Source: Micromonospora ureilytica (GTDB lineage Bacteria; Actinomycetota; Actinomycetes; Mycobacteriales; Micromonosporaceae). Taken from it: 64,000 nucleotides of DNA. Location: positions 3,286,001 to 3,350,000 of the forward strand of contig NZ_JADOTX010000001.1 of the NCBI RefSeq assembly GCF_015751765.1, in the 5' to 3' direction. The notes below the pieces were generated by a model that was not told the origin of the DNA, did no database searches, and saw only the letters and a program-made list of their open reading frames with translations. Position 1 is the first letter of the stretch, and each line of letters starts with the position of its first letter. A program made the translations under genes and the position numbers. Shown one piece after another: positions 5,827 through 54,262 of this stretch.

Positions 5827-5905
5827 TCGTCGATCATGGAGTTGTGGTGGGTGACGAACCGCCCGAATAACGCCAAACCAGGCACCACAACTCCATGATC
5901 GACGA
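5827..5905. repeat. Palindromic element, family 1, copy A
   Basis: A perfect 23-bp inverted repeat (5827-5849 with 5883-5905; arm begins TCGTCGATCATGGAG) encloses a 33-nt loop. The arms are identical to those of the element at 54103-54186, and the loop shares its outer bases (GACGAA near the left, CAGG at the right) but is otherwise different. It lies 29 bp after tex, so it may also act as a 3' hairpin, but there is no U-tract. It does not match a tRNA, riboswitch or terminator that I know. Confidence 0.85.
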
Positions 5906-5923
5906 AGCCGAGCTACCCGTCTC

Positions 5924-5998
5924 CGCCGATCTTGCACTTACTGTCCCGACATAGCCGGCGTTCCGCCTATATCGACGACCGAAAGTGCAAGATCGGCG
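5924..5998. repeat. Palindromic element, family 2, copy A
   Basis: A perfect 16-bp inverted repeat (5924-5939 with 5983-5998; arm CGCCGATCTTGCACTT). The intervening sequence contains a second nested stem (CGACATAG near 5947 against CTATATCG near 5967, with CGG/CCG around a 4-nt loop), so almost the whole 75 nt can fold into one rod. It lies 18 nt after the family-1 palindrome. The arm CGATCTTGCACTTACTGTC recurs at 54194-54262. No gene fits between it and the next start at 6091. Confidence 0.85.
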
Positions 5999-6090
5999 CG
6001 GGCAAGGGGCGCGGCGGGCGGCGGGGGGCGGGGGGCGGGGAAATGTGCTCGCGTGGCTGCGGGATTCGGGGTGATGATCTCGCGGTGAGG

Positions 6091-6975
6091 ATGCACGCCG
6101 ATCAGGTGGACGTGAGCGTGGACGTGGTTTCCGCGCTGGTGGCCGAGCAGTTTCCGCGGTGGCGGGGCCGGCCGATCCGGCCGCTGCCCTCGACCGGCAC
6201 GGTCAACGCCCTGTTCCGGCTCGGCCCGGACATCGTGCTGCGGTTCCCACTGCTCCCCTCGACCGACCCCGAGCTGCGTGCCGAGTTGCGGCGCGAGCAG
6301 GAGCACGCCGTGCTGCTCGGCGGGCACCTGCCGGTCGCGGTGCCCGAACCGCTCGGCCTCGGCGAGCCGGGCGACGGCTACCCCGGGCCGTGGACGGCGT
6401 ACCGGTTCATTCCGGGGGAGACGGCCCAGCCCGACCGGGTCGGCGACCTCGACGTCTTCGCCCGTGACCTGGCCGACGTGGTGACGGCCCTGCGCGGCAT
6501 CGACACCGGCGGGCGGGTCTGGTCCGGGAACGGACGCGGCGGGCGGCTGGCCGCCGAGGACGCCGACGTGCGGGCCGCGCTCGCGGTCAGCGGCGCGCTC
6601 ACCGACATCACAGCGCTCACCGAGGTGTGGGAGCGGTGCCGGGACGCGCGCCGCGACGACCCCGCCGACCGGTGGATCCACGGCGACCTGATGCCTGGCA
6701 ACCTGCTGGTCCGCGACGGCCGGCTGGCCGCTGTCATCGATCTGGGTGCGGTCGGTGTGGGCGACCCCGCGGTGGACCTGATGCCGGCGTGGAACCTGTT
6801 CGACGCGGGTTCCCGGGAGACGTACCGGCGGGCGTTGGCCGTGGACGACGCGACCTGGCAGCGGGGACGCGGCTGGGCCCTGGAGCAGGCGATCAACGCG
6901 CTGCCGTACTACGTGGAGACCAACCCCGTGATGGCCGGCATCGCCCGGCACACGCTGCGGGCCGTGCTCGACTGA
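6091..6975 (+). CDS. Aminoglycoside phosphotransferase (APH/choline kinase) family protein
   Basis: A 294-residue APH-fold small-molecule kinase. The catalytic loop is IHGDLMPGNLLV (Brenner-type H-G-D-x-x-P-x-N) and the metal-binding motif is AAVIDLGAVGVGDPAVDL. The N-lobe shows VNALFRLGPDIVLRFP, where a Lys is normally seen. Such chromosomal homologues usually phosphorylate unknown metabolites, so antibiotic resistance should not be assumed. The start is uncertain: ATG 6091 is used, with in-frame GTG 6085 as the alternative. It follows the palindrome pair and is 24 bp upstream of the next gene. Confidence 0.8.
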   Translation: MHADQVDVSVDVVSALVAEQFPRWRGRPIRPLPSTGTVNALFRLGPDIVLRFPLLPSTDPELRAELRREQEHAVLLGGHLPVAVPEPLGLGEPGDGYPGPWTAYRFIPGETAQPDRVGDLDVFARDLADVVTALRGIDTGGRVWSGNGRGGRLAAEDADVRAALAVSGALTDITALTEVWERCRDARRDDPADRWIHGDLMPGNLLVRDGRLAAVIDLGAVGVGDPAVDLMPAWNLFDAGSRETYRRALAVDDATWQRGRGWALEQAINALPYYVETNPVMAGIARHTLRAVLD

Positions 6976-6986
6976 GTCGGCTCGCG

Positions 6987-6992
6987 TACCGT
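6987..6992 (+). promoter_or_regulatory. -10 element of a likely leaderless promoter
   Basis: TACCGT is followed by 7 nt and the GTG start at 7000. There is no Shine-Dalgarno sequence in the gap, so a transcript beginning at the start codon is likely. Confidence 0.45.
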
Positions 6993-6999
6993 CGGCGTC

Positions 7000-7467
7000 G
7001 TGGGTGAACGGGACGGCCGGGAGTGGCGGGATCAGCAGCGGCACGCGGTGCGGGCGCACGCCGACGCGGACGACCGGCGGCGGGCCGCCGAGCAGGCGCA
7101 GGCGGCGGAGCTGGTGGCCTGGTTCGTGGCCGAGGCGACCCGGCGAGGGCTGCCCACCACCCGCCTGACCGCGCGGGGATATGACGGACGCGGGCGCTAC
7201 CGCACCCGGCTGACCGGCTGGTACGTCGACCGGGCGGAGTCCCGGGCGGTGGACGTGGACGGTCGGTTCCATCTGCTGACCGTGCCGGGCGGCCTGCGGG
7301 CCCTGCTGTTCGGCGTCGACCCACAGCCCAGCCCGGCGCCGCTGGTCGTCGGGGCGGGTGGTCGCGACGGCGAGTCGATCCCGTTGCGCACGTTGCTCAA
7401 CCGGCTGCTGGACGACGGGTCCGGCGAGCCCGGTTCCACCACCGGCCCGGCAGCGCCGGGAGCCTGA
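7000..7467 (+). CDS. Conserved hypothetical protein (155 aa)
   Basis: I do not recognise a named domain. The first ~45 residues are highly charged and Ala-rich, likely helical (RAHADADDRRRAAEQAQAAELVAWFVAEATRRGL). A compact middle follows, with RYRTRLTGWYVDRAESRAVDVDGRFHLLTVPGG, and a Gly/Pro/Ala-rich tail. The pattern resembles small actinobacterial proteins of unknown function. There is no signal peptide or membrane segment. It starts with GTG and has its own probable leaderless promoter, so it need not be cotranscribed with the phosphotransferase upstream. Confidence 0.65.
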   Translation: MGERDGREWRDQQRHAVRAHADADDRRRAAEQAQAAELVAWFVAEATRRGLPTTRLTARGYDGRGRYRTRLTGWYVDRAESRAVDVDGRFHLLTVPGGLRALLFGVDPQPSPAPLVVGAGGRDGESIPLRTLLNRLLDDGSGEPGSTTGPAAPGA

Positions 7468-7645
7468 GCGGCCCGGCCGGACGACAACTTTCCCGGACCC
7501 GGCCCTCCGGAGGCGATCACCCCGGGGTTCGGCACTCGTTCTTCCTGTGTACGCGTCGCGCGTGCAGGACCGGCAGCACCGCAGCCGGGCGGGGGCGGTG
7601 ACCGGTTCGGGCGACGGGGGCCATTCGGGTTGATCCGACACGTAA

Positions 7646-7687
7646 TTGGCCAAACCTCTGCTGCGGCGTTATAAGCCCTGTTATAAC
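7646..7687 (+). promoter_or_regulatory. Promoter with overlapping palindromic operator for the first polysaccharide operon
   Basis: A -35 TTGGCC (7646-7651), a 17-nt spacer and a -10 TTATAA (7669-7674) make a good sigma-70-type promoter. A perfect inverted repeat, GTTATAA (7668-7674) and TTATAAC (7681-7687) with 6 nt between, covers the -10 and the expected start point. This is very AT-rich for the surroundings. A repressor bound here would block the promoter. The mRNA would have a ~45-nt leader carrying CGGAGG before the GTG at 7728. Confidence 0.55.
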
Positions 7688-7727
7688 CATTGTGGTCTTT
7701 TGTCACGTCCGATCGGAGGCGCCGTCC

Positions 7728-8915
7728 GTGGACCTGATCCACCACCGTCCGCCCGTAGCGCGGCGCAGCGGCGGCCCGGCCGTCACCGACCCGGTCTACC
7801 TCTCCCCACCGGACATCGGCGCGCTGGAGGAGTCCTACCTCCTGCGCGCCGTCCGCGCCGGCCGCTTCGACCCCGACGGGCCCGAGTTGGGCGCGTTCGA
7901 GCGGGAGGTCGCCGCCCGGGTCGGCGTCGGGTACGCGCTGGGGCTCTCCTCCGGCACCGCCGCACTGCACATGGCGCTGCTCGCCGTGGGAGCCGGACCG
8001 GACAGCGTGGTGGTGGTGCCCACGCTCACCTTCGCCGCCACGGCCAACGCGGTCACCTACACCGGCGCCGAACCGGTCTTCGTGGACTGCGACGCGGCCA
8101 CCGGCAACCTCGACGTCGGCCTGCTCTCCGCCCTGCTCGGCCAACTGACCGACGCCGGGCGACGGGTCGCCGCCGTGCTGGCCGTCGACATCAACGGCCG
8201 CTGCGTCGACTACGACCGACTGTTGCCGCTCTGCGCGGCCAGCGGCGTCCCGGTGGTGGAGGACGCCGCGCAGGCGCTCGGCTCCACCTACCGTGGCCGG
8301 TGCGCCGGCACCTTCGGCCGGGTCGGGATCTACTCGTTCAGCCACAACAAGATCATGACCACCTCGGCGGGTGGGATGCTGGTCTCCGACGACGCCGCGC
8401 TCGTCGCTCGGGCCCGCCACCTCGCCACCCAGGCCCGCGAGCCGGTGCCGCACTACGAGCACCGCGACGTCGGCTACAACTACCGGCTCAGCACGTTGCT
8501 GGCCGCCCTCGGCCGGGCGCAGCTCAGCAGACTGGACACGATGATCGCCCGACGGCGGTCGCTACGGGACCGGTACGCGCGACTTTTCGCCGCCGTGTCG
8601 GGCACCCGGATCCTCGGCGCCGGCGACCCCGGCTCGAACTGTTGGCTGACCTCCCTCGTGGTCGAGCCGGAGCGGGCCGGCTGGCACGCCGGGGACCTCG
8701 CCGCGCACCTGGCCGGCCTCGGGGTGGAGAGCCGGCCGATGTGGAAACCGATGCACCGCCAACCGGTGTACGCCGACCGGCAGGTCGTCCTCAGCGGCGC
8801 CGCCGATCAGCTCTTCGCCACCAGCCTGTCCCTGCCCAGCGGCTCCGCCCTCAGCGACGAGCAGGTCGAGCGCGTCATCGGCGGGATCGCCGAATTCCTC
8901 GCGGAGCGCCGATGA
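7728..8915 (+). CDS. DegT/DnrJ/EryC1/StrS sugar aminotransferase (PglE-like)
   Basis: A 395-residue PLP-dependent aminotransferase. The internal-aldimine Lys is K208 in SFSHNKIMTTSAGGM. PLP-phosphate contacts are SSGTAALH near residue 75 and VEDAAQALGS near 178. Family members transaminate 4-keto (or 3-keto) nucleotide sugars with glutamate. Because a PglC-like and a PglD-like gene follow directly, the best guess is a UDP-4-keto-6-deoxy-GlcNAc 4-aminotransferase. The GTG start at 7728 has CGGAGG 8 nt upstream. Its stop overlaps the next start (ATGA). A close paralogue lies at 30015-31154. Confidence 0.85.
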   Translation: MDLIHHRPPVARRSGGPAVTDPVYLSPPDIGALEESYLLRAVRAGRFDPDGPELGAFEREVAARVGVGYALGLSSGTAALHMALLAVGAGPDSVVVVPTLTFAATANAVTYTGAEPVFVDCDAATGNLDVGLLSALLGQLTDAGRRVAAVLAVDINGRCVDYDRLLPLCAASGVPVVEDAAQALGSTYRGRCAGTFGRVGIYSFSHNKIMTTSAGGMLVSDDAALVARARHLATQAREPVPHYEHRDVGYNYRLSTLLAALGRAQLSRLDTMIARRRSLRDRYARLFAAVSGTRILGAGDPGSNCWLTSLVVEPERAGWHAGDLAAHLAGLGVESRPMWKPMHRQPVYADRQVVLSGAADQLFATSLSLPSGSALSDEQVERVIGGIAEFLAERR

Positions 8916-9562
8916 GCCGGCCCTATGACGCCGCCAAGCGGGTGTTGGACGTGCTCGCGGCCGCCATCGGTCTGCTGCTGGCCACCCCGGTGATCGCCGC
9001 TGTGGCGTTCGCCGTCCTGATCACGATGGGTCGGCCGGTGCTGTTCCGACAGGCCCGGCCGGGGCGGCACGGGCAGCTGTTCGAGCTGGTCAAGTTCCGG
9101 TCGATGACCGTCGGCGGCGAGGGCGGCGCACCGGCCAACGACGGCGCCCGGCTCACCCGGTTCGGCCGGTGGCTGCGCACGACCAGCCTGGACGAACTTC
9201 CCCAACTGTGGAACGTGCTGCGCGGCGAGATGAGCCTGGTCGGGCCGCGCCCGCTGCTGCCGGCGTACCTGACCCGGTACACCCCGGAGCAGTTCCGCCG
9301 CCACGACGTCCGCCCCGGCATCACCGGCCTCCAGCAGGTGTACGGGCGCAACTCGCTGAGCTGGGAGGAGCGCTTCGCCCTCGACGTGCGGTACGTGCGG
9401 CAGCGCTCGCTGGGGCTCGACCTGCGCATCCTGCTGCGCACGGTACGCACCGTGCTGCTGCGGGAGGGGATCACCGCTTCCGGTGCGGCCACCGCCCACG
9501 AGTACCTGGGCCCGTCCGAGCTGGCCGGTGCCGGCGCCGGGCCGGCGGAGGCCCGGCGGTGA
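8912..9562 (+). CDS. Undecaprenyl-phosphate sugar phosphotransferase (PglC-like)
   Basis: A 216-residue monotopic phosphoglycosyl transferase of the bacterial sugar transferase family (PF02397). It moves a sugar-1-phosphate from UDP-sugar to undecaprenyl phosphate, the first membrane step of repeat-unit synthesis. One hydrophobic re-entrant segment is at residues ~11-38. The FRQARPG and KFRSM motifs follow, then the catalytic Asp-Glu pair D94-E95 in SLDELPQLWNV, and VGPRPLLP. It is the short PglC type without the extra membrane domain of WbaP/WcaJ. It overlaps both neighbours by 4 nt, so the four genes 7728-11423 form one operon. It is the only such initiator seen in the window. Confidence 0.9.
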   Translation: MSRPYDAAKRVLDVLAAAIGLLLATPVIAAVAFAVLITMGRPVLFRQARPGRHGQLFELVKFRSMTVGGEGGAPANDGARLTRFGRWLRTTSLDELPQLWNVLRGEMSLVGPRPLLPAYLTRYTPEQFRRHDVRPGITGLQQVYGRNSLSWEERFALDVRYVRQRSLGLDLRILLRTVRTVLLREGITASGAATAHEYLGPSELAGAGAGPAEARR

Positions 9563-10206
9563 CCCTGGACATCGTCATCGTCGGCTGCGGCGGGCACGGT
9601 CGGGAGGTGCTCGGCATCGTCCGTGCCGTCAACGCCGCCGCCGGCGACGGGCCGCCGTGGCGAGTGCGGGGATTCGTCGACGATCGGCCCAGCGAGGTCA
9701 ACCTGAAGCGGGTGCAGCGGCTGGAGGTGCCCTACCTGGGCGGCACCGGCCGCCTCGCCGAGCAGCCCGCCGGCACGTACCTGGCGTTGGGCATCGGGGA
9801 ACCGGCGGCCCGCCGGGCGGTGGACGCGCGGCTGGCCGGGTACCGGCTGCCGGCCGCCGTGCTGGTGCATCCGGATGCCACCCTCGGCCCGGACGCCGTC
9901 TACGGCGAGGGCCTGATCGTGTTCCCCGGGGCCCGGGTCACCACGAACGTCACGCTGGGCCGGCACGTGCACCTCAACCAGAACAGCGCTGTGGCGCACG
10001 ACTGTGAGCTGGGTGACCACGTCTCGGTCAACCCGCTGGGGGCGGTCTCGGGTGACTGCCGGTTGGGCGACGGCGTGCTGATCGGGGCCGGGGCGGTGGT
10101 GTTGCAGAAGCTGCGGGTGGGCGCCGGCGCCACCGTCGGCGCGGGGGCCTGCGTGGTCCGGGACGTGCCGGCCGGCACGGTGGTCAAGGGAGTCCCGGCC
10201 CGGTGA
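9559..10206 (+). CDS. PglD-like sugar O/N-acyltransferase (left-handed beta-helix)
   Basis: A 215-residue protein with an N-terminal Rossmann-like PglB_N domain (DIVIVGCGGHGREVL) and C-terminal hexapeptide repeats (residues ~105-205). The general-base His of PglD-type enzymes fits H147 in AVAHDCELGDHV. Family role: acetyl-CoA-dependent N-acetylation of a UDP-4-amino-4,6-dideoxysugar. With the aminotransferase and PglC-like gene just upstream, this suggests UDP-2,4-diacetamido-trideoxyglucose (bacillosamine) or a similar sugar. The start is GTG inside the GTGA overlap with the previous stop. Confidence 0.85.
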   Translation: MTLDIVIVGCGGHGREVLGIVRAVNAAAGDGPPWRVRGFVDDRPSEVNLKRVQRLEVPYLGGTGRLAEQPAGTYLALGIGEPAARRAVDARLAGYRLPAAVLVHPDATLGPDAVYGEGLIVFPGARVTTNVTLGRHVHLNQNSAVAHDCELGDHVSVNPLGAVSGDCRLGDGVLIGAGAVVLQKLRVGAGATVGAGACVVRDVPAGTVVKGVPAR

Positions 10207-11423
10207 GCGCCCTCGGCGGCTCCGGTGGCCCCGGCGTGGGTCACCCGTTCGGGGTCCGCCGGCTGCGCATCGCGGTGCTGGTCAAGACGAACGCCGGCGG
10301 CCTGTGGCTGCTGCCGCAGGTCGAGGAGTTGCGCCATCGCGGGCACGAGGTGACAGTGGTGCTGCCCCGGGGGGCCGGTCGGCTCACCGACGAGCTGGAG
10401 CGGCGGGGCTTCGAGGTGCTCAGCTGCCCGTACGACTTCACGATCGGCTGGCACGTGCCGATCGGGCTGCTGCGGCTGCGCGCACTGCTGCGGCGGCTGC
10501 GACCCGACGTGGTGCAGTACCACCTGATCGCCTCGGCGTACGCGGTGCGACTGGCCACCCTGGGGCTGCCGGTGCGCCGGGTGCACATGGTGGCCGGTCC
10601 GGCGTACCTGGAGTCCCGGCTGGTCCGCTCGGTGGAGCGGTGGATGTGGCAGCTGGACGACGTGGTGATCTGCGGCTGCCGGTACGCCTCGGCCCGGTAC
10701 GGTGAGCTGGGTTGCCCGCCGCAGCGACGGCCGGTCGCGGTGTACGGGGTGGACACCGACGCGTTCAGCCCGGAGGCCACCGGCCCGGACCAGCGGGCGA
10801 AGCTCCGCGCCGAGCTGGGCATCGACCAGGCCGCGTTCCTGGCGGTGATGGTGTCCTACGTCCACCCGCCCAAGCGCCTCGTGCACTCCGGTCGCGGTGT
10901 GAAGGGGCACGACGTGCTGCTGGCCGCGTGGCGGACGTTCCGCCGCCGGCACCCGGACGCGCACCTGCTGCTGGTCGGAGGTGGCTGGACGGCCGCCGGG
11001 GAGAGCTACCGGCGGCAGCTCGGCGAACGGTTCGGCGTGGCCGACGATCCCGGGGTGACCTGGGTGGAGTCGGTTCCGGACGTGCGCCCCTGCTACGCCG
11101 CCGCCGACGTGAGCGTCTCGCCGTCGCTGTGCGACAGTCCGGGCACGGCGGTCGAGGCCGGCTCGATGGGTGTGCCGAGCATCGTCAGCGCGGCCGGCGG
11201 ACTACCCGAGGCGGTCACCGAACGCTCCGGGTGGGTGGTGCCCGCGGCGGACCCGACAGCCCTGGTGGACGCGCTCGACGCGGCGTACCGGGGCTGGGTC
11301 ACCGGAACGCTGACCCTACGCGGCCGACTGGCCCGTCAGCACGTGCTGGCGTCCTTCGACGACCTGCGGGCGGCGGCCGAGGTGGCGGACATCGTGGAGG
11401 ACGTGGCGGCCCGCCGACGGTGA
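10203..11423 (+). CDS. Glycosyltransferase family 4 protein
   Basis: A 406-residue GT-B enzyme. The N-domain begins RIAVLVKTNAGGLWLLPQVEELRHRGHEVTVV with the GG loop. The C-domain carries the nucleotide-sugar part SLCDSPGTAVEAGSMGVPSI, where E-A-x-x-x-G-x-P is the GT4 signature. As the fourth gene of the aminotransferase-PglC-PglD operon, joined by a GTGA overlap, it is a good candidate for adding the second sugar to the PglC product. Donor and acceptor cannot be read from the sequence. A strong hairpin follows. Confidence 0.85.
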   Translation: MSALGGSGGPGVGHPFGVRRLRIAVLVKTNAGGLWLLPQVEELRHRGHEVTVVLPRGAGRLTDELERRGFEVLSCPYDFTIGWHVPIGLLRLRALLRRLRPDVVQYHLIASAYAVRLATLGLPVRRVHMVAGPAYLESRLVRSVERWMWQLDDVVICGCRYASARYGELGCPPQRRPVAVYGVDTDAFSPEATGPDQRAKLRAELGIDQAAFLAVMVSYVHPPKRLVHSGRGVKGHDVLLAAWRTFRRRHPDAHLLLVGGGWTAAGESYRRQLGERFGVADDPGVTWVESVPDVRPCYAAADVSVSPSLCDSPGTAVEAGSMGVPSIVSAAGGLPEAVTERSGWVVPAADPTALVDALDAAYRGWVTGTLTLRGRLARQHVLASFDDLRAAAEVADIVEDVAARRR

Positions 11424-11430
11424 GCACGAC

Positions 11431-11476
11431 GGCGGGCGGCCGGTGGCCGGTCTTGCCGGACCACCGACCGCCCGCC
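11431..11476. terminator. GC-rich bidirectional terminator hairpin
   Basis: GGCGGGCGG...GGTGGCCGG (11431-11450) pairs with the complementary run ending CCGCCCGCC (11456-11476) around a TCTTG loop. It fills the 58-bp gap between two convergent genes, the glycosyltransferase and capG. No T-tract follows on either side, as is usual at very high GC. Confidence 0.65.
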
Positions 11477-11481
11477 ACGGG

Positions 11482-12606
11482 TCAGTGCCGGATGCCGGCC
11501 CAGTCGTGGTGGCGCCGCACGGTGGAGAGGATGAAGTCGACGACCCGCCGGGAGGTGTCCGGCACCTGGTAGTCGACCGGGCAGGGCACGCCCTGCGCGG
11601 CCACCTGCGCCACGGTCACCTCGACGGCCTCGACCACACCCTGCGGGTCGAGGCCGGTCATGATGATCCCGCCGGCGTCGAGCGCCTCGGGGCGTTCGAT
11701 CGACTCGCGCAGGGTCACCGCCGGGAAGCCGAGGATGGCGGCCTCCTCGCTGATCGTCCCGCTGTCCGACAGCGTGCAGTACGCCATGGTCTGCAGGTGC
11801 ACGTAGTCGAGCAGGCCGAACGGCTCGTGGAAGGCGATGCCGTCCAGCGCGGTGGCGTCCGGGGCCAGCGCCTCCAGCCGCTTACGGGTGCGCGGGTGCG
11901 TGGAAACCAGCACCGGCAGACCCCAGCGGTGCCGGACCGCGACCAGGCAGTCCAGCAGCCGCTGGAGCCGGTCGGGTCGGTCGACGTTCTCCTCCCGGTG
12001 CGCGCTGACCAGGAAGTAGCCGCCCCGGTCGAGTTCCAACTGGCGCAGGATGCCGGAGCTGGCGATCGGCTCCCGGTAGTGCTCCAGCACCTCGCGCATC
12101 GGCGAGCCGGTGTGCAGGATCCGGCGCGGGTGCAGGCCCTCGGCGAGCAGGTTGCGTCGGGCGTGTTCGGTGTAGACCAGGTTGAAGTCCGCGACGTGGT
12201 CGACCAGCCGCCGGTTCGTCTCCTCCGGCACGTTCAGGTCGAAGCAGCGGTTGCCGGCCTCCATGTGGTAGACCGGCACCCGCATCCGCCGGGCCATCAG
12301 CGCCGCGATGCAACTGTTGGTGTCGCCGAGGACGAGCAGCGCGTCCGGCCGCACCTCGGCGATCGCCGCCTCCATGCCGACGAGGACCCCGCCGAGCACC
12401 CTTCCCAGCGACGAGGTGTCGACGCGGAGGAACCGGTCGGGCTCCCGCAACCGCAGTTCGGTGAAGAACACGTCGGAGAGGGTGGTGTCCCAGTTCTGCC
12501 CGGTGTGCACCAGCACGTGCTCGACGGTGTCGTCGAGCCGGCTGAGCACCCGGGACAGTCGGATGATCTCGGGACGGGTGCCGACGACGGTCATCACCCG
12601 GGTCAT
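11482..12606 (-). CDS. capG: UDP-N-acetylglucosamine 2-epimerase-type enzyme, CapG-like (UDP-L-FucNAc step)
   Basis: A 374-residue non-hydrolysing UDP-HexNAc 2-epimerase fold (GT-B type). Seen: VGTRPEIIRLSRVLSRLD at the N-terminus, HMEAGNRCFDLNVPEETNRR with the two catalytic Glu, SAHREENVD with the conserved His-Arg, and SDSGTISEEAAILGFPAVT. The ETNRR and NRCFD forms, and its place right after capE and capF, favour CapG, which finishes UDP-L-FucNAc by C2 epimerisation, over ordinary WecB. A separate WecB-type gene lies at 44736. It starts 22 nt after the capF stop and is the last gene of its operon. Confidence 0.85.
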   Translation of the reverse strand: MTRVMTVVGTRPEIIRLSRVLSRLDDTVEHVLVHTGQNWDTTLSDVFFTELRLREPDRFLRVDTSSLGRVLGGVLVGMEAAIAEVRPDALLVLGDTNSCIAALMARRMRVPVYHMEAGNRCFDLNVPEETNRRLVDHVADFNLVYTEHARRNLLAEGLHPRRILHTGSPMREVLEHYREPIASSGILRQLELDRGGYFLVSAHREENVDRPDRLQRLLDCLVAVRHRWGLPVLVSTHPRTRKRLEALAPDATALDGIAFHEPFGLLDYVHLQTMAYCTLSDSGTISEEAAILGFPAVTLRESIERPEALDAGGIIMTGLDPQGVVEAVEVTVAQVAAQGVPCPVDYQVPDTSRRVVDFILSTVRRHHDWAGIRH

Positions 12607-12628
12607 GTGGTCTCCCTCTGCAGGTCAC

Positions 12629-14787: not shown

Positions 14788-15057
14788 TGGTTCTCCCGTT
14801 CGTCACCCGACGGGCGGTTGTCACCCGCCAGCCCGGACGCAGCGCTGCACGCTGCCGCGCGGGCGCCGATCTCCGGTGCCCAGGCGAAAGCCCCACCGGA
14901 TGCGGCACCCGGGTCAACGAGAGGTGGGAAGCCCGGATACGTGTTCAACCCAAACACCCCAAACAAGCACCAGCTGGCGCAAAATTGCGTCGAAAAGGTC
15001 CGTGTTTGTCGGGTGAATTCGGCACTTCGTCGGCCTTCACCTGATAGAAACGGTTCC

Positions 15058-16314: not shown

Positions 16315-16331
16315 CCGTCGGGCGAGGCCGG

Positions 16332-19101: not shown

Positions 19102-19109
19102 GACGCGGC

Positions 19110-20054: not shown

Positions 20055-20281
20055 GAGGTCTCCCCTTCGGCCCGTCGGTGGCGGCCCGGCGTCGGCTACC
20101 CAGTGGGACAACGAGCGCTTCCGGTGCAGGTCACGCACCGGAACGCGTGTCCCGTTTCACTTCCGCCCGTTCTCAGCCCTAGTGGGCGAGTTGGGGGCAG
20201 TGGCCCGTTTGATGTGGTGAGCTGACCCTGCGGACAGCAAGCCGGTGCGAGGCCCGGCCGACCCGGACGGGAGTGCCGGAG

Positions 20282-42364: not shown

Positions 42365-42388
42365 TCCGGCACCGCCGGTTCCACCCGG

Positions 42389-44557: not shown

Positions 44558-44735
44558 GCAGGCCCGCCTGCCTTCAGGGAGTAGGAACATCGCTCGCGGC
44601 AGGGCGCCCCTCGGGCAGCGCAAACCGCGACGCATCCGTCATTCGACATTGTATAGAGAGCACAGGCATCAAACTGGATAACTTGTACTATTGCCGCGTC
44701 GCCCCTGATTTGCGTCGGCTTCCACGAGGAGACAC
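44558..44735. promoter_or_regulatory. AT-rich divergent promoter region, fused oxidoreductase / wecB
   Basis: The middle (about 44640-44695) is markedly AT-rich, with TTGTATAG, GGATAACTTG and TACTAT. Promoters for both strands probably lie here, but I cannot pair a -35 with a -10 convincingly. GAGGAG precedes the wecB ATG. Confidence 0.4.
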
Positions 44736-45818: not shown

Positions 45819-45867
45819 CCGCCCCGAACGCCGGGTGCGGTCGCCCCCGATGTGATGAGCTGTACGG

Positions 45868-46788: not shown

Positions 46789-46823
46789 CCCATCCCACCC
46801 TTCACCCAGTTAATCAAGAGGGC

Positions 46824-48467
<1,644 letters not shown>

Positions 48468-48498
48468 TGCGGGAACCTCCTCGGGGAGTACGTGTCGG

Positions 48499-49731
48499 TC
48501 ACGGCTCGACCTTCTGGCCCTTGCCGATCACCACGATGCCGTTGTCGGAGACGGTGTAGCGCTGCCGGTCCTTCTCCAGGTCGACGCCGATCTCGGCGCC
48601 CTCCGGGACGAAGACGTTCTTGTCCAGGATGGCCCGCCGGACCACCGCGTGTCGGCCGATCTCCACACCCTCCATCAACACCGAGCCCTCGACGTGCGCC
48701 CAGGAGTGCACACGCACCTTCGGCGAGACGATCGAGTTCTCCACCAGCGAGCCGGAGATCACCACACCCGGGGAGACCATCGAGCCGACCGCCCGGCCGA
48801 CCCGCTCACCCCACTGGTGGACGAACTTCGCCGGCGGCCACGGCGGCTGCTCCGTGTAGATCGGCCAGTCGAAGTTGTACATGTTGAAGACGGGGTGCAC
48901 GTTGATGAGATCCATGTGCGCGTCGTAGAACGAGTCGAGCGTTCCCACGTCCCGCCAGTAGCCGCGATCGCGGTCGGTGCTGCCGGGCACCTCGTTGTCG
49001 CGGAAGTCGTAGACGTTGGCCTCGCCACGCTCGACGAGCATCGGGATGATGCTGCCGCCCATGTCGTGCTTGCTGGTCTTGTCTTCCGCGTCGCGCTCGA
49101 CCGCCTCGCAGAGCGCCCGGGTGGTGAAGACGTAGTTGCCCATCGAGGCGTAGATCTCGTCCGGTGCGTCGGGCAGGCCGACCGCGTCGGTGGGCTTCTC
49201 ACGGAACGCCCGGATCCGCTTGCCGTCCTCGCCGACCTCGATGACGCCGAACTGGTCGGCCATCGACAGCGGCTGGCGGATGCCGGCGACGGTCACCGCC
49301 GCGCCGGAGGCGATGTGGTCCTCCACCATCTGCCGCGGGTCCATCCGGTAGATGTGGTCGGCGCCGAAGACGATCACGTAGTCGGGCTGCTCGTCGTTGA
49401 TGAGGTTGAAGCTCTGGTAGATGGCGTCGGCCGAGCCGGCGAACCACCACGGGCCACGACGCTGCTGCGCGGGCACCGGGGTGACGTAGTTGCCGAGCAG
49501 CGTGGACATCCGCCAGGTCTTGGTGATGTGCCGGTCGAGGGAGTGGGACTTGTACTGGGTCAGCACGACGATCTTGAGATAGCCGGCGTTGGCCAGGTTG
49601 GAGAGGACGAAGTCGACCATGCGGTACATCCCGCCGAACGGGACGGCCGGCTTGGCCCGATCCGTGGTGAGTGGCATCAGGCGCTTGCCCTCCCCACCCG
49701 CCAGGACGATCGCGAGCACCTTGGCAGCCAT
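48499..49731 (-). CDS. glgC: Glucose-1-phosphate adenylyltransferase (ADP-glucose pyrophosphorylase)
   Basis: A 410-residue enzyme making ADP-glucose from Glc-1-P and ATP. The N-terminal nucleotidyltransferase has [13 protein letters not shown] near residue 10 and [10 protein letters not shown], plus [13 protein letters not shown] and the sugar-binding [10 protein letters not shown]-terminal left-handed beta-helix follows ([20 protein letters not shown]). ATG 49731 follows TAGCGT by 6 nt, pointing to a leaderless mRNA. It is divergent from glgM over a 70-bp gap, so ADP-glucose synthesis and use share a promoter region. Confidence 0.95.
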
Positions 49732-49737
49732 GCCCCG

Positions 49738-49795
49738 ACGCTATCCACCCGCGTCGCACTTCACCACTCGTACGGGGAGTCTTCTGCACTAGGGT
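49738..49795. promoter_or_regulatory. Back-to-back leaderless promoters of glgC and glgM
   Basis: On the minus strand TAGCGT (49738-49743) ends 6 nt before the glgC ATG. On the plus strand TAGGGT (49790-49795) ends 6 nt before the glgM ATG. Neither gene has a Shine-Dalgarno sequence. The two -10 boxes are only 46 bp apart, so the promoters must overlap in their upstream parts and are likely co-regulated. No -35 boxes are convincing. Confidence 0.55.
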
Positions 49796-49801
49796 GCGCA
49801 C

Positions 49802-51019
49802 ATGACCGACTCCTCCCCGGCCACCGGATCCCTGCGCGTCGATCTGCTCACCCGCGAGTACCCACCGGAGGTCTACGGCGGCGCGGGCGTGCACGTCGAG
49901 TACCTGGCTCGGGAGTTGCGCCACCTCACCGACGTACGCGTGCACTGCTTCGGTCTGCCGCGCACCGAGCCGGGCGTCACCGCGTACGCCGAACCGCCCG
50001 GCCTGACCGGCGCGAACGCCGCGCTGCGCACGATGGGCGTGGACCTGGAGATGGCCGCCGGCGCGGCCGGCACCGACGTGGTGCACAGCCACACCTGGTA
50101 CGCGAACCTGGCCGGCCACACCGCGAAGCTGCTGCACGGGGTGCCGCACGTGGTGACCGCGCACAGCCTGGAGCCGTTGCGGCCGTGGAAGGCCGAGCAG
50201 CTCGGCGGGGGTTACGCGCTCTCCTCCTGGATCGAGCGCACCGCGATGGAGGCCGCCGACGCGGTGATCGCGGTCAGTGGCGGGATGCGCAACGACGTGC
50301 TCACCGCGTACCCGCAGATCGACCCCGCCCGGGTCCGGGTGGTCTACAACGGCATCGACACCATCCAGTACACCCCGGATCAGGGCACCGACGTGCTCGA
50401 CCGGCTCGGTGTCGACCCGTCCCGCCCCAGCGTGGTCTACGTGGGCAGGATCACCCGGCAGAAGGGGCTGCCGTACCTGCTGCGGGCCGCCCGGGAGTTG
50501 CCGGCGGACACCCAGCTCGTCCTGCTCGCCGGCGCGCCGGACACCGCCGAGATCGCCGCCGAGGTGGAGGGGCTGGTCGCCGAGCTGCGGGCCAACCGCT
50601 CCGGCGTGGTCTGGGTGGCCGAGATGCTGCCCAAGCCCGAGGTGATCCAGGTGCTCACGCACGCCACCGTCTTCGCCTGCCCGTCGATCTACGAGCCGAT
50701 GGGCATCGTCAACCTGGAGGCGATGGCCTGCGAGACGGCAGTGGTGGCGACGGCGACCGGTGGCATTCCCGAGGTCGTGGCCGACGACGAGACCGGCCTG
50801 CTGGTGCCGATCGAGCAGGTCACCGACGGGTCGGGGACACCGTTGGAGCCGGAGAAGTTCGTCGCCGACCTGGCGGCGGCGATCAACACGCTGCTCGCCG
50901 ACCCGGCGCGTACCGCGCGGTTCGGCCAGGCCGGCCGACGGCGTGCGGTCGAGCACTTCTCCTGGGACGCCATCGCCCGGCAGACACTGGAGGTCTACCG
51001 CTCCGTCGGCGCGGCCTGA
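49802..51019 (+). CDS. glgM: ADP-glucose-dependent alpha-maltose-1-phosphate synthase (actinobacterial GlgA/GlgM)
   Basis: A 405-residue GT4 enzyme, much shorter than GT5 glycogen synthases. Seen: LTREYPPEVYGGAGVHVEYL, VVHSHTWYANLAGHTAKLL and VAEMLPKPEVIQVLTHATVF, then CPSIYEPMGIVNLEAMACE with the E-x7-E signature. In mycobacteria the orthologue (Rv1212c) joins ADP-glucose and glucose-1-phosphate to maltose-1-phosphate. The presence of glgE and glgB 4 kb away supports that role here. Older annotations would call it glycogen synthase. Confidence 0.9.
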   Translation: MTDSSPATGSLRVDLLTREYPPEVYGGAGVHVEYLARELRHLTDVRVHCFGLPRTEPGVTAYAEPPGLTGANAALRTMGVDLEMAAGAAGTDVVHSHTWYANLAGHTAKLLHGVPHVVTAHSLEPLRPWKAEQLGGGYALSSWIERTAMEAADAVIAVSGGMRNDVLTAYPQIDPARVRVVYNGIDTIQYTPDQGTDVLDRLGVDPSRPSVVYVGRITRQKGLPYLLRAARELPADTQLVLLAGAPDTAEIAAEVEGLVAELRANRSGVVWVAEMLPKPEVIQVLTHATVFACPSIYEPMGIVNLEAMACETAVVATATGGIPEVVADDETGLLVPIEQVTDGSGTPLEPEKFVADLAAAINTLLADPARTARFGQAGRRRAVEHFSWDAIARQTLEVYRSVGAA

Positions 51020-51032
51020 GAGAGCGCCAGGC

Positions 51033-51977
51033 TCAGATCGCCGTTCCCGGCGGCGACTTGAGCAACGGCGTCGCCTCGGCGGCATGACCACCACGCCCGT
51101 TCCGTAGCGCGCTGGCCGCGATGCGGATCAGGTCGATGTTGACCCCGGCGGCACCACTGGGATCGTGCACCTTCAGCTTCACGTCGAGGCTCACCGCCGT
51201 CTCGCCCCAACCCTGCGCCTCCAGGTTGAGGTGAGCCACCTTCTGCGACGCGAGATGCGGCAGGTAGCCGAGCGGGGCCACCTCCACCCTGTCGGCCGCC
51301 GAGAGGGCGTTGAGCTTCGACTGCTTCTTGGTGTTGGGGTTCTCGACCAGGTTGCGGAAGTCCTCGGTGCCGCCCAGATTGACCTGGTAGGAGCTGACCA
51401 GTGTGAGACCCCGCTCCGCCAGCAGCCGCAGCAACGCGTTGTGCAGCACCGAGGTGCCGAACTGGCTGGCCAGGTCGTCGCCGAGCAGCGGCAGACCGGC
51501 CGCCTCGAAGCTGGCCAGCAGCTGCGGATCGCGGGCGACCGGGTCGGCGGTCGTGTTGATGAAGGCGACACCCGCCGCCTGCGCTGCCGCGGCGTACGCC
51601 CGGGCGGTCTCTGGCCGGCCACTCGGCGCGGAGTAGAGCAGCACCTCCGCCCCGACCAGCGCCGCTGCCACCCGCTGCACCTCGCTCGCGTCGACCAGGC
51701 CCTTGGTGACCGGCACGCCCGCTTTCGGCAGGTCGCAGTTCAGCCGAGGGAAGTTGTTGGGCGCCAGGAAGATCGCCTCGGTCAGGTCCCGACCGATCTT
51801 CTCCGCGGAGGTGGCGAAGGCCGCCACGACGTCGATGTCCCCCACCCCGAGACCGTCGATCATCGGCCGGCGGATTCCGACCAGGCTGCCGCTCTGGCGG
51901 TAGAGAGCGAGCCCCTGCACCAGTGCCGACGTGTTGTTACCGACGCCGACAACCGCGACTTTCACCCGTTCGATCAT
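51033..51977 (-). CDS. Inositol-3-phosphate synthase family protein
   Basis: A 314-residue NAD-dependent isomerase-type protein that would convert glucose-6-phosphate to inositol phosphate. Seen: VAVVGVGNNTSALVQGL, FLAPNNFPRLNCDLPKAGVPVTKG, LLGDDLASQFGTSVLHNALL, SYQVNLGGTEDFRNLVE with NTKKQSKLNAL, and PLGYLPHLASQKVAHLNLE. It is a little shorter than the usual ~360-residue actinobacterial enzyme, so it may be a second, diverged copy. ATG 51977 follows TAGCCT by 6 nt (leaderless). It ends convergently 13 bp after glgM. Confidence 0.85.
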   Translation of the reverse strand: MIERVKVAVVGVGNNTSALVQGLALYRQSGSLVGIRRPMIDGLGVGDIDVVAAFATSAEKIGRDLTEAIFLAPNNFPRLNCDLPKAGVPVTKGLVDASEVQRVAAALVGAEVLLYSAPSGRPETARAYAAAAQAAGVAFINTTADPVARDPQLLASFEAAGLPLLGDDLASQFGTSVLHNALLRLLAERGLTLVSSYQVNLGGTEDFRNLVENPNTKKQSKLNALSAADRVEVAPLGYLPHLASQKVAHLNLEAQGWGETAVSLDVKLKVHDPSGAAGVNIDLIRIAASALRNGRGGHAAEATPLLKSPPGTAI

Positions 51978-51983
51978 GGCCGG

Positions 51984-51989
51984 AGGCTA
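51984..51989 (-). promoter_or_regulatory. -10 element of a likely leaderless promoter (inositol-phosphate synthase)
   Basis: TAGCCT on the minus strand ends 6 nt before the ATG at 51977, with no ribosome binding site between. No -35 box is clear. Confidence 0.45.
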
Positions 51990-52097
51990 CGGCACCTCCG
52001 GGTCGGTGAGCTGCCCCAGCGGGACCATCCGGCGACGACGGTCAATCCCCCGCAGGTCCAGCGCGCTGACTGACTCCCGGGGACCAACTGACGGCCG

Positions 52098-53276
52098 TCA
52101 GGCGACGCCGAGGGTGGTGGCGAGCTGGACGATGCCGGCGGGGGCGTCGGCGGACCGCCACACGACGGCGACCAGCTTTCGTACCGCCGGACGGTCATGC
52201 ACCTCGCTGTGGGCGGTGCGTTCCGCGTCGAGCAGCGTCCGGCCAGCCCGAAGCATGTCGCCGGTCAGGGCGTATGCGCGGGCCACATCGAGGAGGTACG
52301 CGGCACGATGCTCGGGCGGCAGCCACCGCCATTCCTCGCCGGCCACCAGCCGCTCGTGCCGAACCGTGGCCGTGCTGACGTCGCCAAGGGCCGCCTCGGC
52401 CACCACCCGGGCAGCCTCGACCAGCGCCCGGCCGAAACCCCCGCCAGCCCTGTTGCTGTCGCCACCGAACTCCTGAGCGATCTCCGTGGCCTGATCGAGC
52501 GCTCGGCGGGCGCGGGGTTGGTCCTTGCCGCCCGCTGCGGCGAGCGCAGCCTGGATCAGTAGCGTGCCCCGAAGCGATGAACCGACCGGAGAGTCATCGC
52601 CGGCCCGCAACGCACCGATGCGGTCCGCGGCGACGAGCGCGGCCTCCAGGGCGGACCGCCGTCGACCACGGGACCGCAGGGCCTGACACAGTGCCACCGT
52701 GGCGACGCCGGCCAACTGCGGGTCGTCGGTCGCCAGGGCGACGGTCATTCCACGGTCGGCGGCCAGCCAGGCCAACTCCCCCTGGTCGACCTTGACCAGC
52801 GCCAACGCGGTGAGCGCATACACCCGCACCAGCAGCGCGTCCGTCGCGCCGGGGAGAGCTATCTGCGCTCCGCGGACCGCGTCGAGCAGGCCGGGCAACA
52901 GTGCCAGCAACGCCGGGTACCGGGCATGCCGATAACTCTGCTCGGCATGCTCCAGCCGGGCAGCCAACTCCTCCACCAGCGGCGGCCGGTCCGCGCCCGG
53001 TAGGTGGTATCGGGCCAGCGCCGTCCGGACCCCGTCGACCCCGGCAGCGACCGGAGCCGGCCGCACGGGCCGGGCCGCCAGCAGGACCTCCACGTCGATG
53101 CGCAGCGTCTCGGCGACCTCCCGGAGGTTGGACACCCGCTCCAACCGACGTACCCCCCGCTCGACCTTGTCCACCCAGCTCTTGGACTTGCCGAGCCGGT
53201 CGGCAAACTGCTGCTGCGTCATGTTCCGCCGTACCCGCCACTGCGCGACCCGGCGACCCACCGGCAGCTCGTTCAC
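52098..53276 (-). CDS. XRE-family transcriptional regulator with C-terminal helical repeat domain
   Basis: A 392-residue regulator. The N-terminal helix-turn-helix is at residues ~8-65 (RRVAQWRVRRNMTQQQFADRLGKSKSWVDKVERGVR). The rest is a TPR-like all-helical region (YALTALALVKVDQGELAWLAADR, AARVVAEAALGDVS). This plan is very common in Streptomyces and Micromonospora, often beside a small wall or membrane protein or a DUF397 gene. GTG 53276 is chosen because the family starts NELP-x-GRRVA there. It begins 16 bp after the small membrane protein gene, so the two are probably cotranscribed. Confidence 0.85.
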   Translation of the reverse strand: MNELPVGRRVAQWRVRRNMTQQQFADRLGKSKSWVDKVERGVRRLERVSNLREVAETLRIDVEVLLAARPVRPAPVAAGVDGVRTALARYHLPGADRPPLVEELAARLEHAEQSYRHARYPALLALLPGLLDAVRGAQIALPGATDALLVRVYALTALALVKVDQGELAWLAADRGMTVALATDDPQLAGVATVALCQALRSRGRRRSALEAALVAADRIGALRAGDDSPVGSSLRGTLLIQAALAAAGGKDQPRARRALDQATEIAQEFGGDSNRAGGGFGRALVEAARVVAEAALGDVSTATVRHERLVAGEEWRWLPPEHRAAYLLDVARAYALTGDMLRAGRTLLDAERTAHSEVHDRPAVRKLVAVVWRSADAPAGIVQLATTLGVA

Positions 53277-53292
53277 CGCCGGCCCGTCGCGC

Positions 53293-53490
53293 TCACCGCA
53301 GCACCCCAACCACAAACAGCACGAGTACGACCACAGCGATCGCGATGCCGTAGGAGTACTGCCCCCGGGTCAGCGGCGCCCGCGCCGACCGGGGCGGACC
53401 GGGCACCCGATCCCCGTCCGGCTGCGGAGGCCGCGCCCCCGCAATCGGGTATGCGGGCGGCAACGACCCATCCGGCAAACGCTCGTCCAA
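53293..53490 (-). CDS. Small protein with C-terminal membrane anchor
   Basis: About 65 residues from TTG 53490, which has AGGAGGAGG 5 nt upstream; an in-frame GTG at 53577 would give 94 residues but has no ribosome binding site. The protein is Pro/Arg-rich and cytoplasmic at first, then ends in one clear membrane helix (YGIAIAVVVLVLFVVGVLR), so it looks tail-anchored. No function is known to me. Its gene directly precedes the XRE regulator and faces the GntR regulator gene. Confidence 0.55.
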   Translation of the reverse strand: MDERLPDGSLPPAYPIAGARPPQPDGDRVPGPPRSARAPLTRGQYSYGIAIAVVVLVLFVVGVLR

Positions 53491-53633
53491 CTGAGCCTCC
53501 TCCTCGGTGAGAGATCGCGGGCGATGAGAGATGCAGGTCGGGGGCGGCTCACGCGGGGAGCCGTTGCGCCTCGCCACCCGGCCGATCGGGACACTCCGCT
53601 GCTGACGAGAGGATCCCTGCCACCTCCAACTTA

Positions 53634-53648
53634 GAAGGCAGTGCCTTC
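53634..53648. promoter_or_regulatory. Palindromic operator candidate between small-protein/XRE operon and gntR-type gene
   Basis: A perfect inverted repeat, GAAGGCA and TGCCTTC around one central G, lies in the divergent region. It sits just outside the minus-strand TAAGTT (possible -10 region) and 74 bp upstream of the small GntR gene. It is a good candidate site for the GntR or the XRE protein, given that both genes flank it. Confidence 0.45.
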
Positions 53649-53721
53649 ACAGTCAACAGAGCATGCACGGCATGTCACCCCTGGTGCGAAGATCGGGGCG
53701 CTGACGAGAGGTGGCGCCACC

Positions 53722-53949
53722 ATGCCGCAAGCACCGCTGTACGAGCAGATCATTGCTGACGTCGTGGCCTCGGTCCGCGCCGGCACGTTGCAGCCGAACG
53801 ACAAGTTGCCGTCGATCGCGGAGATGGGCGAGCAGTACCAATCAAGCGCCTGGCCGGTGCGGTACGCCCTGCGGATCCTGGAAGAGCGGGGCTGGATCGT
53901 CACCCGGCAGGGCAAGGGGTCGTTCGTGGCATCGAACCCGCCCGCCTGA
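53722..53949 (+). CDS. Small GntR-family winged-helix regulator
   Basis: A 75-residue protein consisting only of the GntR DNA-binding domain: PLYEQIIADVVASVRAGTLQPNDKLPSIAEMGEQYQSSAWPVRYALRILEERGW and the wing GWIVTRQGKGSFV. No effector domain follows, so it either works as a bare DNA-binding dimer or needs a partner. ATG 53722 is preceded by GAGAGG with slightly long spacing. It is divergent from the small-protein/XRE operon and is followed by the palindrome island. Confidence 0.82.
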   Translation: MPQAPLYEQIIADVVASVRAGTLQPNDKLPSIAEMGEQYQSSAWPVRYALRILEERGWIVTRQGKGSFVASNPPA

Positions 53950-53975
53950 CTCCGTTCGAGCCCCTCATCCGGCCT

Positions 53976-54052
53976 AGATCCACTCGGGTTTCAGGAAACC
54001 GTCGCATCCGGGTCGCGCCGACTCCGCGCTTTCATTGAACGCGTGTGGATCT
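53976..54052. repeat. Palindromic element, family 3
   Basis: AGATCCAC (53976-53983) and GTGGATCT (54045-54052) are perfect inverse copies. The stem continues inward with matched pairs and single mismatches (CG/CG, then GTT/AAC), giving a ~16-bp interrupted stem around a ~45-nt loop. No copy is seen in the first island near 5.8 kb. Confidence 0.6.
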
Positions 54053-54102
54053 TGCCGGCAGCACCGTTGCATGACGCTGGCTGTTCGTCAACGCCCGCAC
54101 CA

Positions 54103-54186
54103 CCTCGTCGATCATGGAGTTGTGGTGGGCGACGAAGTGCAAGTTATAGCGTCAAAACAGGCACCACAACTCCATGATCGACGAGG
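54103..54186. repeat. Palindromic element, family 1, copy B
   Basis: A perfect 25-bp inverted repeat (54103-54127 with 54162-54186) around a 34-nt loop. The inner 23 bp of each arm are identical to copy A at 5827-5905. The loop differs from copy A in its centre but keeps GACGAA near the left and CAGG at the right, and can form an extra GACG/CGTC stem. Conserved arms with a changed loop suggest a spreading or constrained element. Confidence 0.85.
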
Positions 54187-54193
54187 CTCACCT

Positions 54194-54262
54194 CGATCTT
54201 GCAGTTTCTGTCGTCCAAATGCACGGGATGCGCTTTATGTCGCGACAGTAAGTGCAAGATCG
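54194..54262. repeat. Palindromic element, family 2, copy B
   Basis: A 20-bp inverted repeat with 18 matches (54194-54213 with 54243-54262; right arm inverse CGATCTTGCACTTACTGTCG) around a 29-nt loop. The left arm of copy A at 5928-5947 matches this consensus at almost every base. It lies 7 nt after the family-1 element, in the same order and orientation as in the first island. Its right end is 31 bp from the vapC stop. Confidence 0.85.

What the first reader, a model, noticed from the sequence alone, without database searches (positions are those of the whole stretch)
5827..54262. The same ordered pair of long palindromes lies at two loci 48 kb apart
Family 1 (23-25 bp perfect arms at 5827-5905 and 54103-54186) is followed in both places, 18 or 7 nt later, by family 2 (16-20 bp arms at 5924-5998 and 54194-54262). 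Arms are nearly identical between loci while loops differ in sequence and length. Order and orientation are kept. No gene is inside. This pattern fits a dispersed non-autonomous element, a REP/BIME-like unit or a structured RNA. I know no description of this pair, but I cannot search.
Basis: seen in the sequence. Interest (0 to 1): 0.7.

Follow-up and report, generated by a model that had tools for sequence, protein, structure and literature searches.

The report
Swappable palindromes behind Micromonospora gene ends
The two palindrome pairs belong to a large Micromonospora set of short hairpin repeats that sit just behind the stop codons of genes, probably as two-way transcript-end hairpins, and at matching places in related species a hairpin is usually kept while its family is often swapped and was once seen flipped.

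Summary
The pair is real, with one correction: at the second locus the family-2 hairpin is inverted relative to family 1 (13 of 14 composites share one relative orientation; this is the exception). It is no segmental duplication: the genome holds 56 family-1 and 151 family-2 arm hits (reversed-pattern control 0). F1 and F2 belong to a Micromonospora set of about 45-75 bp palindromes with GATCnTG ends and nearly fixed lengths. Of 85 slots that I held, 43 lie between convergent, 34 between tandem and 5 between divergent genes, 3 at edges, none inside a gene; median 35 nt from a stop codon. In 18 same-family orthologous pairs the arms changed at 17 of 576 sites, the middles at 102 of 518. Of 26 comparisons of own elements with syntenic slots, 16 show the same family, 10 another, none empty; seen from G074, at least two F1 copies have empty counterparts. 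One element was inverted in place. No linked transposase or target duplication was found. Best reading: mobile-origin 3'-end hairpins, probably bidirectional terminators or RNA-end barriers, kept by selection and exchanged between families. Termination itself is untested.

The parts
5827..5905 (+). F1 palindrome, locus 1 (core CGATC...GATCG 5831-5901, 71 nt)
   Evidence: folds at -51.4 and -48.5 kcal/mol on the two strands
5906..5923 (.). 18-nt spacer of the F1-F2 composite, partly alignable among the 14 composites
5924..5998 (+). F2 palindrome, locus 1, canonical orientation (core 5927-5995, 69 nt)
54103..54186 (+). F1 palindrome, locus 2 (core 54109-54180, 72 nt)
54187..54193 (.). 7-nt spacer of the composite at locus 2
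54194..54262 (-). F2 palindrome, locus 2, inverted relative to F1
3320..5797 (+). tex reading frame (start not determined) whose stop lies 29 nt before locus 1
   Evidence: ORF 2357-5797; Pfam Tex_N, Tex_central_region, Tex_YqgF, S1
6091..6975 (+). APH-type phosphotransferase frame after locus 1 (tandem slot; start chosen by eye)
   Evidence: Pfam APH 3.8e-32
53641..53949 (+). GntR-type regulator gene before locus 2
   Evidence: Pfam GntR 6.1e-16
54294..54749 (-). PIN-domain gene facing locus 2 (convergent slot)
   Evidence: Pfam PIN 1.4e-8

Best explanation
F1 and F2 are two subfamilies of a Micromonospora superfamily of short palindromic repeats of mobile origin that have become transcript-end hairpins. 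They lie shortly behind stop codons, mostly between convergent genes, and can form a 16-25 bp stem in either RNA strand. SHOWN: position, hairpin-forming capacity on both strands of the window's copies, constraint on arms and length in place, frequent retention of a hairpin at orthologous slots, presence of different families at the same slot in different species, and one in-place inversion. INFERRED: that the hairpin stops transcription or blocks 3' exonucleases for one or both genes (like U-less terminators), that selection for this keeps the slot filled, that the families spread as mobile repeats, and that spreading and swapping use an unidentified recombinase or transposase acting in trans, or hairpin-mediated recombination.
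For: Context: of 82 slots with a clear context 43 are convergent and 5 divergent, against 41 and 59 of 264 intergenic regions in a 400 kb sample; median 35 nt from stops (n=120), 151 nt from starts (n=44). Constraint: 18 same-family orthologous pairs, arms 17/576 changed, middles 102/518, site-wise p 4e-20 (pairs share own copies and are not independent). Length: 21 of 26 F1 are 71 nt and 64 of 67 F2 are 69-70 nt although 40-110 was allowed; 62 of 62 F7 are 55 nt, with 48-56 allowed. Slot retention: own against G074, convergent regions 13 both, 12 neither, 3 discordant, p 7e-5; tandem 18, 98 and 9. Swaps: of 26 own-to-G074 or own-to-G071 comparisons (14 distinct own slots) 16 same family, 10 another (7 slots). 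Repeat-family and locus-specific palindromes seldom share a convergent region: repeat only / specific only / both are 11/7/0 (own), 13/8/1 (G074), 12/9/1 (G071), where independence would give 1.9, 2.9 and 2.8 with both (my arithmetic). Both strands fold, z -4.1 to -11.5. F7 shows more two-sided pair changes (12) than shuffles (mean 4.6; 1 of 2000 reaches it).
Against: No RNA data: termination is not shown. Seen from G074, slots are not always filled: F1 at 285685 has no palindrome in the own genome or G071, F1 at 328215 none in G071, and a further F1 at a tandem slot none in either. G023 has neither F1 nor F2 at window locus 2. Few T-runs: 5 of 87 repeat-family palindromes have 4 or more T after (or A before) within 8 nt. 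No covariation within F1 (25) or F2 (67): arms are kept as sequence, which an RNA stem alone would not need. No bias for G-U over A-C on the sense strand of tandem slots (9 against 6, p 0.61). About half of convergent regions have no strong palindrome (23 of 41, 22 of 44, 25 of 47), so such hairpins are not obligatory. Genes come from a simple home-made predictor.
Confidence: 0.55

Rival explanations
1. Selfish MITE- or REP-like repeats without host function: an unidentified transposase targets gene-end hairpins or the C-rich/G-rich sequence behind stops, and purging from genes and promoters leaves copies at 3' ends.
For: Large copy-number differences between congeners (0 to 119 F1-arm hits); composites copied as units; conserved inverted ends with divergent middles; one palindrome nested in another at the orthologous slot of G065; G074 F1 copies at places that are empty in both relatives look like gains.
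Against: Arms stay intact in place in orthologs while middles diverge, not expected of inert copies. No F1 arms around a gene-sized stretch in 140 loci; no clean filled/empty pair with a target duplication for these families in the regions viewed. Occupation of orthologous regions is strongly correlated.
Confidence: 0.27
2. Double-stranded binding sites of a chromosomal protein: arms are paired operators at fixed spacing, used for chromosome folding, segregation or supercoiling.
For: Arms kept as sequence without covariation in F1 and F2; nearly fixed lengths; a GACA box on one side shared by F1, F2 and F7 (by eye).
Against: Families with different arms and lengths occupy the same slots; strong tie to stop codons; F1 arms absent in 9 of 34 same-genus genomes.
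Confidence: 0.1
3. DNA uptake signals arranged as inverted pairs in terminators, as in Neisseria and Pasteurellaceae.
For: Same arrangement of inverted copies at gene ends (PMC1852404, passages).
Against: Arms are seldom single: 119 paired F1 elements against 20 lone arms in 140 loci, some lone ones at the ends of the stretch. Copy number is near 100, not the 1,000 or more given for uptake signals.
Confidence: 0.02
4. Genes for small structured RNAs, one per locus.
For: Stable folds.
Against: No Rfam match in the window; no conserved inner pairing; position tied to the ends of neighbouring genes.
Confidence: 0.03

Closest known systems
REP/BIME with RAYT (GTAG REPs) and CGTC REPs (PMC3733652, passages seen)
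   Same: Extragenic palindromic repeats in high copy, often as dimers or composites; CGTC REPs likewise lack a dedicated transposase.
   Different: 20-40 bp units against 45-75 bp here; GATCnTG ends, no fixed GTAG tag; no RAYT linked. The words Actinobacteria, Micromonospora, Salinispora, Streptomyces and Frankia occur 0 times in its main text.
Yersinia ERIC and similar palindromic mRNA stability elements (cited in passages of PMC2267715; YPAL recalled, a source paper was not held)
   Same: Miniature palindromic repeats whose RNA hairpins act on neighbouring gene expression.
   Different: Other sequence and host; family exchange and inversion at orthologous slots are not mentioned in the passages seen.
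SPRITE, BOX and RUP of Streptococcus pneumoniae (review PMC10969869, passages)
   Same: Short mobile repeats, one of them terminator-like, which cluster and insert into one another.
   Different: SPRITEs are called rho-independent terminator-like; the repeats here mostly lack a T-run.
Uptake-signal terminators of Neisseria and Pasteurellaceae (PMC1852404, passages)
   Same: Repeated words arranged as inverted pairs at gene ends.
   Different: There the word is 9-11 nt and occurs generally 1,000 times or more.
U-lacking, highly structured transcript ends in Streptomyces clavuligerus (PMC8269248, passages)
   Same: High-GC actinobacterial 3' ends with a stem-loop but few U; bidirectional ends occur.
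   Different: No repeat families in the passages seen; loops of about 4-8 nt against about 30 nt here for F1 and F2.

Membership tests
REP/RAYT | A Y1 (RAYT-type) transposase gene flanked by the repeats | tested here: not met
   One PF01797 hit in the own genome; no GATCnTGnA ends and no F1, F2 or F4 arms (up to 4 mismatches) within 1.5 kb
REP/RAYT | GTAG (or CGTC) tag beside a 20-40 bp palindrome | tested here: not met
   Ends are GATCnTG and units are 45-75 bp; CGTC stands beside many F1 copies but is not a fixed tag of F2 (by eye)
MITE | Terminal inverted repeats, short, non-coding, multicopy | tested here: met
MITE | Target-site duplication at a clean filled/empty pair | tested here: inconclusive
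   Empty counterparts exist, but none viewed has a clean junction with a duplication; part of the output was cut
MITE | Autonomous parent with the same ends | tested here: inconclusive
   No F1, F2, F4, F7 or F8 arms 0.5-4.5 kb apart in 140 loci drawn by F1; one F5 pair at 3 mismatches (L299) looks like chance. Not a whole-genome test
Intrinsic terminator | Stable hairpin shortly behind a stop codon | tested here: met
Intrinsic terminator | U-tract after the stem | tested here: not met
   5 of 87 repeat-family palindromes; U-lacking ends are described in Streptomyces
Intrinsic terminator | Transcript ends at the hairpin in vivo | not testable with these tools
   no RNA data
DNA uptake sequence | Very many copies, also outside inverted pairs | tested here: not met

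The most novel reading that the evidence does not exclude
Micromonospora gene ends carry retained hairpin sockets into which interchangeable, invertible palindromic cassettes are exchanged: selection keeps a two-way terminator in the socket while an unknown hairpin-directed recombination system swaps one family for another and flips cassettes in place.
Probability: 0.2. Interest if true: 0.8.

Novelty: new variant of a known kind. Interest (0 to 1): 0.55.

Why it matters
Palindromic repeats are usually studied as selfish or as scattered regulators. Here one can watch, slot by slot across a genus with many sequenced species, repeats that stay at gene ends while their sequence family turns over. 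That makes it testable whether transcription terminators are renewed by mobile repeats, how high-GC actinobacteria with few U-tracts separate convergent genes, and whether a hairpin-directed recombination system exists.

Tried and rejected
Segmental duplication of the two loci: rejected, similarity is confined to the elements and copies lie genome-wide. RAYT or IS200 link: one Y1 transposase, unlinked. Autonomous parent with F1 ends: none in 140 loci; the same scan gave one F5 pair 2.3 kb apart in L299, which on reading matches the F5 arm poorly and was judged chance. Covariation in the symmetric register and over all column pairs for F1 and F2: nothing beyond column composition; RNAalifold gives only outer stems. 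One orthologous pair looked compensated in a shifted register (own 171859 and G071), but the family-wide test did not bear this out. Locus-specific complementarity of outer flanks: pairing is close to the null in the fixed register, slightly above it for F2 at positions -12 to -20. Strand effects in tandem slots: not significant. Plasmids and phages (F1-F2 composite of locus 1) and viral contigs (exact F1 arm): no match; other families were not tried there. Missing elements at the window's slots: G023 and G117 lack F2 at locus 1, G028 and G074 lack F1 there, G023 lacks both at locus 2; none shows a clean junction. Literature: eight paper searches showed no description of this set in their listings; only open-licence PMC papers are held, and from four of the papers cited I saw passages only (five papers, passages).

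Limits of my counts: the 85 slots and 99 elements are those in the stretches I held, not the whole genome. The slot and constraint tests start from elements intact in the own genome, so decay there is not sampled; one own-to-G071 slot holds a decayed F2 below my palindrome threshold, counted as same family. At own 47960 the palindrome found in G071 resembles a second palindrome that the own region also holds, so this case may be a loss rather than a swap. The 400 kb region was chosen because it was dense in elements. The first arm count used 15 pairs; three left out were added. F7 was collected with a pattern that fixes 12 of its first 16 arm positions, so only four arm pairs there could vary. 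Many of the discordant regions hold a weaker version of the same hairpin (whose output was cut in the middle).
Full report
THE OBSERVATION. Both loci hold the palindromes as described. Locus 1 has F1 at 5827-5905 (23 perfect pairs) and F2 at 5924-5998; locus 2 has F1 at 54103-54186 (25 perfect pairs) and F2 at 54194-54262. Five shuffled windows gave at most 15.5 on the scale where the four score 23, 25, 17 and 15.5. One claim fails: the F2 hairpin at locus 2 is inverted. F1 and F2 have asymmetric middles, which gives a copy a direction (ambiguous for 6 of 67 F2 and 1 of 25 F1). In 13 of 14 composites F1 and F2 point the same way, and locus 2 is the exception.

GENOME-WIDE. The window is 3286001-3350000 of a 7,096,270-bp single-contig genome. 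F1 arms (up to 3 mismatches) occur 56 times, F2 arms 151 times, reversed controls 0. A stricter pattern for whole elements matches 76 places, control 0. From the stretches I held (82 contigs, 395,732 bases) I extracted 99 palindromes with related ends: 26 F1, 67 F2 and 6 others. Fourteen of the 26 F1 stand beside an F2; these composites align from about CCTCGTCGATC to GATCGGCGCGG, with a spacer of variable length, and lose similarity outside. So the window's pair is a composite repeat, not a local duplication.

ANATOMY. F1 and F2 share a frame: ends CGATCwTG, then sAsTT, then a box GACA on one side (by eye). Their arms differ from each other at matching positions in both arms. F7 (GATCATGAAGTTATTG) has the same GACA box at the same distance (by eye). 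Lengths are nearly fixed: 21 of 26 F1 are 71 nt and 64 of 67 F2 are 69 or 70 nt; 62 of 62 F7 are 55 nt, where 48-56 could have matched. Middles diverge strongly. On both strands the four window elements fold better than all 200 shuffles (z -4.1 to -11.5). Within F1 and F2 no covariation exceeds column composition. F7, with four arm pairs free to vary, shows 12 two-sided changes against 4.6 in shuffles.

POSITION. I grouped the elements into 85 slots and called genes with a simple codon-usage predictor: 43 convergent, 34 tandem, 5 divergent, 3 at edges, none inside a gene. The median distance is 35 nt from a stop codon (n=120) and 151 nt from a start codon (n=44). In a 400 kb sample of the same genome, intergenic regions number 41 convergent, 164 tandem and 59 divergent, and strong palindromes of any kind occur in 18, 29 and 6 of them. 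Locus 1 lies behind a tex gene and before an APH-type gene; locus 2 lies between a GntR-type gene and a convergent PIN-domain gene.

SLOTS ACROSS SPECIES. I compared the 400 kb region with the syntenic stretches of two congeners, G074 and G071. G071 has a contig of the same length as one of M. saelicesensis DSM 44871, from which I infer its name. Of the 15 own elements listed, 14 have a syntenic region in G074 and 12 in G071. In these 26 comparisons 16 show the same family (one decayed below my threshold) and 10, at 7 own slots, another: F7 replaced by F8, F4 or F1; F2 by F8 or other families. None was empty. Seen from the other side it is less complete: of G074's 11 elements, 10 have a syntenic region in the own genome, where F1 at 285685 has no counterpart palindrome, and 10 in G071, where 285685 and 328215 have none; another G074 F1 at a tandem slot is empty in both. 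All 8 of G071's elements have a palindrome in both others, counting weak F5 copies. Counting all strong palindromes, own against G074 gives, in convergent regions, 13 both, 12 neither and 3 discordant (p 7e-5); of the 13, 5 have different arms. Tandem: 18, 98 and 9, of which 2 of 18 differ. The other two genome pairs agree in direction. The window's own slots behave alike. For locus 1, 19 of 20 fetched congeners could be read: F1 and F2 (G051), F2 alone (G028, G074), F1 alone (G023, G117), F4 (eight genomes) and other palindromes (six). Locus 2 holds the composite in G028, an F6 palindrome in G051, and neither F1 nor F2 in G023, where a short GC-rich repeat lies.

CONSTRAINT AND INVERSION. In 18 same-family orthologous pairs the 32 outer arm positions changed at 17 of 576 sites and the middles at 102 of 518 (p 4e-20 by sites; pairs share own copies), with two gaps in the 15 pairs and none in the three added. 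Arms are thus kept in place, not merely recently copied. One slot (own 125490, G074 124716) has similar flanks, but the middle matches at 0.77 only after reverse complement and at 0.50 as written. Against the 66 other own F2 copies, the G074 copy reaches at most 0.61 in either direction, so this is the same element, flipped. F2 at locus 2, reversed against its F1 in the own genome, is a second sign.

RANGE AND MOBILITY. F1 arms (up to 1 mismatch) occur in 25 of 34 same-genus genomes, with 0 to 119 hits, in 0 of 8 genomes of other genera in the family, and as single one-mismatch hits in 3 of 207 genomes of other families. F2 arms occur in 4 of 6 same-genus genomes and 0 of 95 of other genera in the family. 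F7, by a fixed pattern, occurs in 3 of 6 same-genus genomes. Nothing was found in plasmids, phages or viral contigs with the queries used. The one Y1 transposase is unlinked, and no F1 arms flank a gene-sized stretch in 140 loci. Spread is inferred from copy number and from the G074 gains; its engine is unknown.

READING. Position, two-strand hairpins, constraint in place and correlated slot occupation together favour a host role at transcript ends, most simply bidirectional termination or a barrier to 3' exonucleases, served by repeats of mobile origin. The lack of a U-tract does not exclude this in high-GC actinobacteria: U-lacking structured ends and bidirectional ends are described in Streptomyces clavuligerus (PMC8269248, passages). 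Repeat-family and locus-specific palindromes seldom share a convergent region, as expected if either kind can do the job, though the numbers are small. What is not shown is any transcript ending there, any clean fresh insertion, and any enzyme. Arms are kept as sequence rather than as pairing in F1 and F2, so a protein that reads the arms remains possible.

NOVELTY. Palindromic repeats at gene ends are a known kind. I saw no description of this set in the listings of eight paper searches, of which searched four arm strings themselves. New in degree are the superfamily with common ends but several arm sets and fixed lengths, and above all the exchange and inversion at slots that mostly stay filled.

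CHECK. Added: the empty slots seen from G074, the F5 pair in L299, and a null for the inversion without orthologs.

Noticed in passing
own 4388001-4788000 region, G074, G071: Further palindrome families at gene ends: F4 AGATCTTGGACAGTTTCCGT, F5 GATCATGGGGTTGGCGG, F6 CGATCnTGGnTGTAGTGG, F7 GATCATGAAGTTATTG, F8 GATCAAGAGGTTTGCGTC, and unrelated ones beginning CTTTGCTCTGCACC and GTGAGTCATC.
   Followed up: partly
G074 stretch, shown: An insertion of about 169 nt, CTAGGGCGTGTTTCGG...CCGAAACACGCCCTAG, with an empty site in the own genome and CTAG at both ends: it looks like an ordinary MITE, unlike F1 and F2.
   Followed up: no
locus L169 (G065), less clearly L162 and L170: F4 lies inside a longer palindrome TGTCGAGCTGCCCCA...TGGGGCAGCTCGACA: nested palindromes in the slot orthologous to window locus 1.
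   Followed up: no
window 403-436: A GC-rich hairpin with short loop (score 15, loop 4), not of these families.
   Followed up: no
L171 (own 2801297-2801656): The genome's only Y1 transposase, beside a 407-aa open frame on the other strand; it may be an IS605-type element (the frame was not tested).
   Followed up: partly
G074, about 284406-284929 of the reversed 400 kb stretch: By eye, a small helix-turn-helix-like gene is inserted beside the F2 slot, absent from the same place in the own genome and G071.
   Followed up: no
draft genomes G033 and G082: Matches to the region around locus 1 stop near contig ends inside or close to the palindrome slot; the repeats may break short-read assemblies.
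   Followed up: no
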